Of a stretch of 64,000 bases of DNA, positions 23,492 to 25,853 are shown in pieces (the first letter of the stretch is position 1; every line of letters begins with the position of its first letter). This stretch comes from Actinocatenispora sera (GTDB lineage Bacteria; Actinomycetota; Actinomycetes; Mycobacteriales; Micromonosporaceae). The notes beneath the pieces were generated by a model, which had not been told where the DNA came from, did no database searches, and saw nothing but the letters and a program-made list of their open reading frames with translations. The position numbers and the translations under genes were made by a program. The stretch is taken from contig NZ_AP023354.1 in assembly GCF_018324685.1 (NCBI RefSeq), forward strand, positions 3,224,001 through 3,288,000, in the 5' to 3' direction.

Positions 23492-25123
23492 CTAGACCAG
23501 GCGCAGCTGTTCTGCCGGCGGCGCCTGCGGGGCGGTGTCGCCGACTTCGCGAAAGTTGCCGGCCGACCGGTCCGGCAGCCCGTGCCGGCGGCACGCGGAC
23601 CGCACCCGGGCGACGACGGTGCGCTGGTAGGCGGCCGGGGCGTAGCTGCCGTTGCGGTAGAGCCGCCGGTACGGCTGGACCAGTCGCGGGAAGTGCCGCT
23701 CCAGGAACGCCTGGTACCACTCGCGGGCACCGGGTCGCAGGTGCAGCACGATCGGCGTGATGCTGGTGACGCCCGCCTCGACCAGCGCCGCCACGGTGCG
23801 GTCCAGCTCGGCCTCCTGGTCGGTGAGGCCGGGCAGGATCGGTGCCATCAGCACCGAGCAGCCGATGCCCGCGTCGGTGAACCGGCGGACCAGGTCGAGC
23901 CGGCGTGACGGCGCCGGGGTGCCCGGCTCGACCAGCCGCCACAGCGTCTCGTCCAGGAACCCGATGGAGAAGGCGACCGACACGTCGGTGACCGCCGCGG
24001 CCTGGGTGAGCAGGTCCTGGTCTCGCTGGATCAGCGTGCCCTTGGTCAGGATCGAGAACGGGTTGGCGTGGTCGCGCAGCGCGCCGAGGATCTCGCGCAT
24101 CAGCCGGTAGCGCCCCTCGACCCGCTGGTACGGATCGACGTTGGTGCCCATCGCGATCGGCTCGCCGCACCACCGGGGCGAGGCCAGCTCGCGCCGCAAC
24201 AGTGCCCCCGCATTGACCTTCACGATGATCTTCGAATCGAAGTCGTGCCCCGCATCCAGATCCAGATAGGTGTGCGTGTTCCGGGCGAAGCAGTTGTGGC
24301 TGACCACGCCGTTCGCGAGGAAATCCCCGGTTCCGGTGGTGATGTCGTACATCACGCGTTCCTCGGCGAGATCCTCGATCGAGACGACCCGCAGATCCGC
24401 GCCGCACTCGACCCCGGTACCGATCGGCGTCCGCACAGGGTCGACCGGGTACAGGTGCGTCGCAAGGGCCCCGTCGCCTCGGCTGGTACCGGACCGGTAC
24501 CCGCGGCGGTGGTCCGGCCGTGCGGCGGCCGGGACGGGATGCGAACCGAGGCCGAGCAACGTGTCGCCGGTGCCGAGGTGCGGCCGCCGTGCGGAGCCGC
24601 CCGCCGCTTCGCGGACGTGTTTCCAGCCGCGCTCGGTCAGGAACCGGTGATCGCCGCTGGCCACGATGGTCGTGCCGTCGGCGAGCGTGACCCGGTGCGC
24701 CCGCTTCACGGTGCGCCAGTGCGCCAGCACCCGGGTCGGGACGTATCGCCGGTCGACGCCGTCCCGGCGGGTTCCGCAGATCTGGTCACCGACGTGTAGC
24801 TCGGCGATCGGGCGCGAACGCCCGTCCGCGAGCAGCACCCGTGTCGCGCCGTCCAGGCAGTAGACGCAGGCATGGGTGCAGCCCCGGTAGGGGTTGATGG
24901 TCCAGCGGAAGGGCATGGCCGACTCGCCGGGGACGCGGTTGATCAGCGACTTGGCCTGGATCTCGATCGCCATCGCGTCTTCGGTGCCGGCGATGACCGG
25001 CCCGGTCGGGGCGAGGTGCAGGCCCGCCCGACCCGAACCGCGCCGCTGCGCCGCCGGATCGGGCAGGTCGAGCGGCAACGCCTGCTCGGCCAGGTGGTCG
25101 GCCCGCTGCTGTTCCCAACGCAT
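23492..25123 (-). CDS. Rv2578c-family radical SAM protein interrupted by an intein
   Basis: The 543-aa precursor splices to about 354 aa. The extein is a COG1533/SplB-like radical SAM protein. Its cluster motif CxxxCxxC is split: YRGCTHACVY is before the intein and CFARNTHTY after it, so splicing restores the third Cys. Other extein motifs are ALLRRELASPRWCGEPIA and TKGTLIQRD. The substrate is unknown; SplB relatives repair DNA. The ATG at 25123 is preceded by GGAGGG one base away; an ATG at 25132 is the alternative. A perfect LexA box lies ten bases upstream of the start, so DNA-damage induction is likely. Confidence 0.92.
   Translation of the reverse strand: MRWEQQRADHLAEQALPLDLPDPAAQRRGSGRAGLHLAPTGPVIAGTEDAMAIEIQAKSLINRVPGESAMPFRWTINPYRGCTHACVYCLDGATRVLLADGRSRPIAELHVGDQICGTRRDGVDRRYVPTRVLAHWRTVKRAHRVTLADGTTIVASGDHRFLTERGWKHVREAAGGSARRPHLGTGDTLLGLGSHPVPAAARPDHRRGYRSGTSRGDGALATHLYPVDPVRTPIGTGVECGADLRVVSIEDLAEERVMYDITTGTGDFLANGVVSHNCFARNTHTYLDLDAGHDFDSKIIVKVNAGALLRRELASPRWCGEPIAMGTNVDPYQRVEGRYRLMREILGALRDHANPFSILTKGTLIQRDQDLLTQAAAVTDVSVAFSIGFLDETLWRLVEPGTPAPSRRLDLVRRFTDAGIGCSVLMAPILPGLTDQEAELDRTVAALVEAGVTSITPIVLHLRPGAREWYQAFLERHFPRLVQPYRRLYRNGSYAPAAYQRTVVARVRSACRRHGLPDRSAGNFREVGDTAPQAPPAEQLRLV
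24293..24859 (-). other. Mini-intein within the radical SAM gene
   Basis: The 189-residue insertion (precursor residues 89-277) begins with Cys in block A (CLDGATRVLLADGR, PIAELHVGD). It has a block B-like TTIVASGDHRFLT and ends with block F/G (VMYDITTGTGDFLANGVVSHN), followed by Cys as the +1 extein residue. All residues for standard splicing are present: Cys1, block B His, His-Asn and Cys+1. The space between blocks is too short for a LAGLIDADG endonuclease, so it is a mini-intein that cannot home by itself. Confidence 0.92.
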
Positions 25124-25132
25124 GCCCTCCAT

Positions 25133-25148
25133 TCGAACACACGTTCGA
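25133..25148. promoter_or_regulatory. LexA (SOS) box
   Basis: TCGAAC-ACAC-GTTCGA is a perfect 16-bp match to the actinobacterial/Gram-positive LexA operator TCGAAC-N4-GTTCGA. It lies ten bases upstream of the radical SAM start codon, where a bound repressor would block transcription. I recall Rv2578c being listed among LexA-controlled genes in M. tuberculosis, which fits. Confidence 0.85.
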
Positions 25149-25469: not shown

Positions 25470-25853
25470 ATGACCGGCGATCGCCCCACGTTTCTGTTCG
25501 ATGGCGACTGCGCGTTCTGCTCGAGCTGCGCGGGGTTCATCGAGCGGCACATCCCGACCCGGGCCGCCGTGCTGCCCTGGCAGCGGGTCGACCTCGACGC
25601 GCTCGGCGTCAGCCAGCAGCAGGTCGACGAGTCGGTGCAGTGGATCGACGCGGCCGGAGTCGCGTCCGGGCCGGACGCGATCGCCCGGCTGCTGCGCGAT
25701 GCCGGTTCGTTCTGGCGGCCGCTGGGCGTGGTGCTCGGCGCGCCGCCGGTGCGCTGGCTGGCCTGGCCGGTGTACCGGTGGATCTCCCGGCACCGTGACC
25801 TGATGCCCGGCGGTACCGCCGCCTGCGCGCTCCCCGCCGCCGACCGCCACTGA
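25470..25853 (+). CDS. DCC-family thiol-disulfide oxidoreductase
   Basis: The 127-aa protein begins with FLFDGDCAFCSSCAGFI. The DxDCxxC segment (DGDCAFC) gives the DCC family its name, with two cysteines in CxxC spacing as a likely redox pair. It ends with the family's WPVYRWISRHRD segment. Related proteins are often neighbours of HTTM membrane proteins, and one lies convergent 92 bases downstream. It probably acts on thiols near the membrane; the substrate is unknown. Confidence 0.9.
   Translation: MTGDRPTFLFDGDCAFCSSCAGFIERHIPTRAAVLPWQRVDLDALGVSQQQVDESVQWIDAAGVASGPDAIARLLRDAGSFWRPLGVVLGAPPVRWLAWPVYRWISRHRDLMPGGTAACALPAADRH

What the first reader, a model, noticed from the sequence alone, without database searches (positions are those of the whole stretch)
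23492..25148. Intein splits the radical SAM cluster motif of a LexA-controlled gene
The intein sits between the second and third Cys of CxxxCxxC. The precursor therefore cannot assemble the usual [4Fe-4S] cluster, and activity requires splicing; the +1 Cys is the third cluster ligand itself. Together with the LexA box this would make two gates, damage-induced transcription and a splicing step whose catalytic Cys may respond to redox state. Inteins of this family are known in Rv2578c-like proteins, so the insertion site is not new; the combined control is the point of interest.
Basis: partly seen in the sequence, partly recalled or inferred. Interest (0 to 1): 0.7.

Follow-up and report, generated by a model that had tools for sequence, protein, structure and literature searches.

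The report
Intein in an SOS radical-SAM gene
A self-removing protein segment sits inside the active-site motif of an actinobacterial enzyme whose gene carries a DNA-damage switch; both features are real, but relatives show that the switch belongs to the enzyme gene and that the segment comes and goes without it, so this is a new example of something already catalogued rather than a new control device.

Summary
Window 23492-25123 (-) encodes an Rv2578c-family radical SAM protein interrupted by a 189-aa mini-intein (24293-24859). It passes NCBI's existing model for this arrangement (NF038136, 736 vs cut-off 700 bits). The +1 residue is the third Cys of CxxxCxxC. A perfect LexA box (25133-25148) ends 9 nt before the conserved ATG, one of seven exact copies in the 7.04-Mb genome; others lie by lexA, ruvC and imuA'.

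(1) The precursor's motif is not broken in sequence: intein Cys1 stands in the third position (58 of 58 inteins), so 'cannot assemble the cluster' does not follow. (2) LexA control belongs to the host gene: boxes with at most 2 mismatches precede 46 of 48 intein-bearing and 32 of 35 scored intein-free family genes (background 6 of 2306), while the intein changes at least 15 times on the host tree. (3) A Cys-3/Cys1 redox trap is already published for the Pyrococcus abyssi MoaA intein.

Most likely: a splicing-competent element that lost its homing endonuclease at a conserved active-site codon. Regulated splicing is untested. New member of a known kind.

The parts
23492..25123 (-). Rv2578c-family radical SAM gene with in-frame intein, conserved ATG (MRW) to stop
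   Evidence: NF038136.1 736.1 bits (cut-off 700)
24860..25123 (-). N-extein, ends ...GCTHACVY (Cys-7 = C92, Cys-3 = C96 of P0001)
24293..24859 (-). 189-aa mini-intein: Cys1 (C99), SGDH block-B motif, C-terminal VVSHN; remnant of LAGLIDADG motif 1 (GYRSGTSRGDG), motif 2 not found
23495..24292 (-). C-extein, begins with +1 Cys (C288, codon 24290-24292) = third cluster Cys, then FARNTHT
25133..25148 (.). LexA (SOS) box, perfect palindrome TCGAAC-N4-GTTCGA, 25 to 10 nt before the conserved ATG

Best explanation
An intein of the already catalogued rSAM_Rv_intein kind occupies the codon boundary before the third cluster Cys of an SOS-regulated Rv2578c radical SAM (SplB-like) protein. LexA represses the gene and DNA damage releases it (inferred from the box). 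The precursor is translated, Cys1 attacks the Tyr-Cys1 bond, the +1 Cys takes over the N-extein, Asn287 cyclises, and the joined exteins carry the authentic CxxxCxxC with Cys288 as third ligand (inferred from conserved splicing residues and the known mechanism of such inteins). The element came by homing or descent into a very conserved active-site codon, has lost its endonuclease in this lineage, and stays because only an exact deletion removes it without harming the host (inference). LexA control and intein are independent: the first belongs to the host gene, the second comes and goes. Splicing may be slowed by oxidation through Cys-3/Cys1, as in P. abyssi MoaA, but nothing here shows that it is, or that it is selected for.
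For: Family models over cut-off. Cys1 and C-terminal His-Asn in 58 of 58 inteins at this site (window + 57 loci); CxxxCx[YF]C, then C[FY]A directly or after the intein, in 139 of 139 unnamed-genome loci. Exact empty site in same-genus L113. Host tree (quick method) of 85 rows: 49 with, 36 without intein, at least 15 changes, 7 forced by well-supported branches. LexA box with at most 2 mismatches within 60 nt of the start: 46 of 48 intein-bearing and 32 of 35 scored intein-free family genes, 6 of 2306 random 60-nt stretches; 9 of 9 intein-bearing named loci (one of them, Hamadaea, repeats a family locus). Of the six other exact boxes of the genome, four lie by SOS-type genes: lexA with a YneA-like neighbour, ruvC, imuA', a SAV_6107-like gene. 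Same-genus series: 283 aa with both LAGLIDADG motifs (L116), 205 (L115), 189 (window), none (L113). dN/dS 0.03-0.07 in exteins, 0.20-0.39 in the splicing part. Radical SAM proteins are reported in LexA regulons (PMC7739468, PMC9380542; passages).
Against: No splicing, induction or redox data exist for this gene here. Pfam Intein_splicing misses its cut-off. 13 of 48 family inteins are 143-171 aa long: such persistence without endonuclease could also be read as host benefit. Of five scorable intein-bearing loci outside the family, one has a box with 3 mismatches (L124) and one none (L128). The radical SAM gene reported for S. venezuelae has a printed box (at -61) unlike the one that I find in most Streptomyces loci, so it may be another gene.
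Confidence: 0.85

Rival explanations
1. Redox-gated splicing: under oxidising stress Cys-3 (second cluster Cys) and Cys1 form a disulfide that holds the precursor inactive until the cell is reducing again, protecting an oxygen-labile [4Fe-4S] enzyme that LexA has just induced.
For: Cys-3 beside Cys1 is present in the window and the 57 other intein-bearing loci; the Cys-3/Cys1 trap is published for the P. abyssi MoaA intein (PMC3922620, PMC10663303; passages); 3nzm, a DnaE intein with N-extein in redox trap, is among the weak sequence matches (E 0.024) and the fold matches (rank 15).
Against: Cys-3 is a cluster Cys in intein-free proteins too, so its conservation is no evidence of a switch. No data on this protein.
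Confidence: 0.2
2. The intein is a host-recruited second gate that evolution keeps together with LexA control.
For: Both features occur in one gene; short inteins without endonuclease persist in several clades.
Against: LexA boxes are as common without the intein; the intein changes at least 15 times on the host tree; the independent-pairs test found no link, but with 6 pairs on well-supported branches it had little power (median p 1).
Confidence: 0.06
3. Degenerate, non-splicing intein: the gene is inactive in this strain.
For: Endonuclease region mostly deleted; intein evolves faster than exteins.
Against: Junction and block residues kept, dN/dS under 0.4 in the splicing part and about 0.06 in the exteins, open frame.
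Confidence: 0.04

Closest known systems
NCBIfam NF038136 (intein-containing Rv2578c family radical SAM protein)
   Same: Same host family and a match over the curated cut-off; inteins at the same boundary in 57 other loci.
   Different: The window's intein is short (189 aa) because most of the endonuclease region is gone; the model has 574 positions in all.
Pyrococcus abyssi MoaA intein (redox trap, Callahan et al. 2011)
   Same: Intein Cys1 three residues after an N-extein Cys; a Cys-3/Cys1 disulfide blocks splicing there (reviews PMC3922620, PMC10663303; passages). That MoaA is a radical SAM enzyme is recalled.
   Different: Archaeal host, other enzyme; there the disulfide was shown, here it is only possible. 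The original paper (PMC3087850) was not held and was not seen.
RecA intein of Mycobacterium tuberculosis
   Same: An intein inside an SOS-induced gene (recalled), so LexA plus intein in one gene has a precedent; its splicing domain is among the fold matches.
   Different: Other host protein and insertion site; no cluster motif (recalled).
M. smegmatis DnaB intein 1 (oxidative stress sensor, PMC6195587)
   Same: Disulfide of the catalytic Cys that halts splicing under H2O2 in an actinobacterium (passages).
   Different: Class 3 intein; the disulfide lies within the intein, not with an extein Cys.
Intein-free Rv2578c proteins with a LexA box
   Same: Same enzyme family and, in the window's family, the same box at about the same distance.
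   Different: No intein. In Streptomycetaceae the box is mostly a variant farther upstream.

Membership tests
NF038136 intein-containing Rv2578c radical SAM protein | Whole-protein score over the curated cut-off | tested here: met
   736.1 vs 700 bits
NF038136 intein-containing Rv2578c radical SAM protein | Intein between CxxxCx[YF] and the third Cys | tested here: met
   same boundary in the 57 other intein loci
Class-1 intein | Cys1 nucleophile, block-B His, C-terminal His-Asn, +1 Cys/Ser/Thr (definition recalled) | tested here: met
   C99, SGDH, VVSHN, C288
Class-1 intein | Autocatalytic splicing | not testable with these tools
   needs expression of the precursor
Homing (mobile) intein | LAGLIDADG endonuclease with both motifs | tested here: not met
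   window keeps only a motif-1 remnant; same-genus L116 has both
LexA (SOS) regulon gene | LexA box next to the start, conserved in orthologues | tested here: met
LexA (SOS) regulon gene | Damage induction and LexA binding | not testable with these tools
   reported for a radical SAM gene of S. venezuelae (PMC9380542, table passage); whether that gene is the orthologue was not checked, and its box differs
Redox-trapped intein (Cys-3/Cys1, MoaA type) | Cys at -3 and at 1 | tested here: met
   C96 and C99
Redox-trapped intein (Cys-3/Cys1, MoaA type) | Disulfide forms and blocks splicing | not testable with these tools
   biochemistry needed

The most novel reading that the evidence does not exclude
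Because the intein's Cys1 stands exactly where the third cluster ligand belongs, the precursor itself presents CxxxCxxC. It might take up iron or an Fe-S cluster on Cys-7, Cys-3 and Cys1; a ligated Cys1 could not start splicing, so cluster or metal occupancy (or a Cys-3/Cys1 disulfide) would hold the precursor as a reserve, made in bulk by SOS induction and released only when the ligand leaves. Splicing would then swap one cluster ligand (Cys1) for another (Cys288) in the same place.
Probability: 0.07. Interest if true: 0.7.

Novelty: new member of a known kind. Interest (0 to 1): 0.27.

Why it matters
The arrangement itself is already in NCBI's family models. Its use is as a natural system: one genus offers alleles with a 283-aa intein, two differently shortened forms and an exact empty site, all with an exact LexA box in front, so the question whether an active-site intein delays or gates an SOS enzyme can be asked directly. 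The swap of cluster ligand (Cys1 for +1 Cys) in radical SAM inteins is a testable chemical point that I did not find stated in the passages seen.

Tried and rejected
Rejected: an association of LexA box and intein. Rejected: a second intein in the genome by the model intein_Nterm; its only other match (L227) is a pretoxin Hint domain.

Literature (9 of 10 searches, open-licence papers only): intein + radical SAM + LexA gave 1 paper, on Thermus viruses, listing only; Rv2578c + intein 0; intein + MoaA + redox 3 (two opened for passages); Rv2578c + LexA 0; intein with iron-sulfur terms 18, 15 listed, one opened for passages; Rv2578c alone 2, one opened; LexA regulon / radical SAM / actinobacteria 206, 15 listed, two opened; intein + radical SAM + actinobacteria 2, listing only; 'RecA intein' + LexA 1 review, where LexA is part of a marker construct. 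No paper was read whole.

Weak points. The scripts located inteins by searching for CxxxCx[YF]C and for C[FLYM]AR after N or Q, so Cys1 and the final Asn are partly built into the search; no locus of the 139 failed it. The end of L104's intein was first set wrongly (CLAR inside the intein) and corrected; the start of a few loci was mis-set (LRF for MRW) and reset. 13 of 139 loci without a recognisable MRW start were left out of the box counts, one of them (L079) in the family. G002 (gene in two fragments) and secondary matches were left out of the family set. In one search, 2 of 80 named loci (L161, L193) had no readable motif and were dropped, and starts were set by a looser rule. At least four named loci repeat unnamed ones, judged by equal contig length (Planosporangium, Virgisporangium, Hamadaea, Stackebrandtia).

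The AlphaFold2 precursor model (33-row alignment, mean pLDDT 76.5, pTM 0.60) has pLDDT under 50 at residues 80-85 and 279-297 (numbering from the conserved Met), in the cluster loop, and in three other stretches; it neither shows nor excludes cluster binding.

Full report
What is there. The minus-strand gene 25123-23492 encodes a 543-residue precursor (residues 11-553 of P0001). It passes NCBI's model for 'intein-containing Rv2578c family radical SAM protein' (NF038136.1, 736.1 bits, cut-off 700), the parent model NF038135.1 (465.7, cut-off 430) and both generic intein end models. Pfam Radical_SAM passes; Pfam Intein_splicing lies under its cut-off. The intein is residues 99-287, window 24293-24859. 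It follows GCTHACVY and precedes CFARNTHT, so the +1 Cys is the third Cys of the radical SAM motif CxxxCxxC. In a relative of the same genus without intein (L113) the two flanks meet exactly there.

The precursor motif. In sequence it does not: intein Cys1 occupies the third position, so the precursor reads CTHACVYC. Splicing exchanges Cys1 for Cys288 at the same place. Whether the precursor can bind a cluster is therefore open; a 189-residue domain in the cluster loop makes activity before splicing unlikely (inference). In the AlphaFold2 model of the precursor the Hint domain and most of the C-terminal half are confident, the cluster loop is not. Foldseek ranks Hint-fold chains first (a T. 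thermophila BIL domain, then DnaB, gp41-1, DnaE and RecA inteins), with 3nzm, the DnaE intein with N-extein in redox trap, at rank 15 and the radical SAM enzyme SuiB at rank 50 of the 50 rows shown.

The intein. Cys1 and C-terminal His-Asn occur in 58 of 58 inteins at this site (window and 57 loci). Of 48 family inteins 13 are 143-171 aa long, one is 205 (L115) and 34 are 283-379. Within the window's genus the series is 283 aa with both LAGLIDADG motifs (L116), 205 (L115), 189 (window, motif-1 remnant only) and none (L113). By simple patterns both motifs were recognised in only 7 of 34 long family inteins, so decay is common or the patterns are too strict. Pairwise dN/dS between the three same-genus alleles with intein is 0.03-0.07 in the exteins and 0.20-0.39 in the splicing part of the intein, which suggests that splicing is still under selection. 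The window's intein is predicted to splice but not to home by itself.

The LexA box. TCGAACACACGTTCGA at 25133-25148 lies 25 to 10 nt before the conserved ATG. The genome holds seven exact boxes against 0 for the reversed control. Four of the six others lie by SOS-type genes: lexA (TIGR00498, 95.7 bits on a 121-residue piece, whole-protein cut-off 110.95) with a divergent gene weakly like YneA (51.1, cut-off 60), ruvC (TIGR00228 over cut-off), ImuA' (NF058630 over cut-off) and a SAV_6107-like HEPN gene (PF18726 over cut-off); for L001 and L002 the target is unclear. The box thus belongs to an SOS regulon by sequence; binding was not measured. Papers report a radical SAM protein in the Gram-positive core SOS regulon (PMC7739468, passages) and a radical SAM gene induced 20-fold by mitomycin C with a LexA peak in S. 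venezuelae (PMC9380542, table passage); the box printed for the latter (at -61) is unlike the one I find in most Streptomyces loci, so it may be another gene. The Rv2578c family is described as annotated SplB in several strains, with low similarity to B. subtilis SplB, in PMC12924846 (passage).

Are the two controls linked? A search of 101 genomes of the window's family gave a match in 86, 85 over the cut-off. 84 loci besides the window were analysed, 48 with and 36 without intein. Within 60 nt upstream of the start, a box with at most 2 mismatches stands before 46 of 48 intein-bearing and 32 of 35 scored intein-free genes; the five others have 3 mismatches at -24 to -26. Random 60-nt stretches from the loci analysed gave 6 of 2306. 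Fisher p for a difference is 0.65. With the core GAAC-N4-GTTC and at most 1 mismatch the counts are 47 of 48 and 32 of 35, background 40 of 2277. On the host tree of 85 rows the intein needs at least 15 changes, 7 of them forced by well-supported branches; it is clustered (0 of 500 shuffles as low, mean 27.6), as expected for descent. The independent-pairs test shows no link but has only 6 pairs on supported branches.

Outside the family. Of 80 named loci (the best 80 of at least 594 matching stretches), 78 were readable: 9 have the intein, all 9 with a box of at most 2 mismatches (one repeats a family locus); 47 are Streptomycetaceae, none with intein, 33 with a 3-mismatch variant box mostly 46-58 nt upstream, 8 with at most 2 mismatches, 6 with none within 60 nt. 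In the phylum sample (396 genomes, 174 with a match, 45 over the cut-off) 55 loci were analysed: 9 with intein, of which five could be scored (three with at most 2 mismatches, one with 3, one none), and of 38 scored intein-free ones 26 have at most 2 mismatches, 10 have 3 and 2 none. So the LexA gate belongs to the host gene and the intein is laid over it by its choice of insertion site.

Redox gate. Cys-3 beside Cys1 is the geometry of the redox trap shown for the P. abyssi MoaA intein (reviews PMC3922620 and PMC10663303, passages; the original paper was not held); another Cys pair does the like in M. smegmatis DnaB (PMC6195587, passages). Here Cys-3 is conserved for the cluster anyway, so its presence says nothing about selection for a switch. 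This step is possible, not shown.

Verdict. Observation confirmed; interpretation partly supported; new member of a known kind. The bold reading that remains open is that the precursor's CxxxCxxC, with Cys1 as a surrogate ligand, binds metal or cluster and thereby locks splicing.

Noticed in passing
window 25470-25850 (+): The divergent neighbour is a DCC1-like thiol-disulfide oxidoreductase (PF04134, 58.2 vs 27.8 bits). A relative lies near the radical SAM gene in 35 of the 219 loci then held (flanks of different length): 18 with intein, 11 without, 6 named ones not split, so it does not go with the intein.
   Followed up: partly
family loci, residue -2 before the insertion site: Arg at -2 (CxxxCRYC) occurs in 7 of 36 intein-free but 1 of 48 intein-bearing family genes (Fisher p 0.019, not corrected for descent or for choosing this residue). 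It may reflect the homing site or splicing compatibility.
   Followed up: no
Streptomyces loci among L037-L050 and L150-L222: In Streptomycetaceae the box in front of this gene is mostly GGGAAC-N4-GTTCTA some 46 nt upstream, keeping the GAAC-N4-GTTC core (33 of 47 named loci have such a 3-mismatch box, where the organism is inferred).
   Followed up: partly
L227 (G000:C1:4112271-4112495): The only other intein_Nterm match in the genome is a pretoxin Hint domain (PF07591), not an intein.
   Followed up: partly
L002 (G000:C1:1042794-1042809): An exact LexA box lies at the start of a frame with a weak match to an F420-dependent PPOX oxidoreductase (TIGR03618, 30.2 vs cut-off 79.05), a possible unexpected SOS target.
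   Followed up: no
L161, L193 (Streptomyces): Two named Streptomyces copies lack a readable cluster motif (altered, or after a stop codon); possible sequencing errors or damaged genes. PMC12924846 reports this gene family as the integration site of phage Samy in Streptomyces (passage).
   Followed up: no
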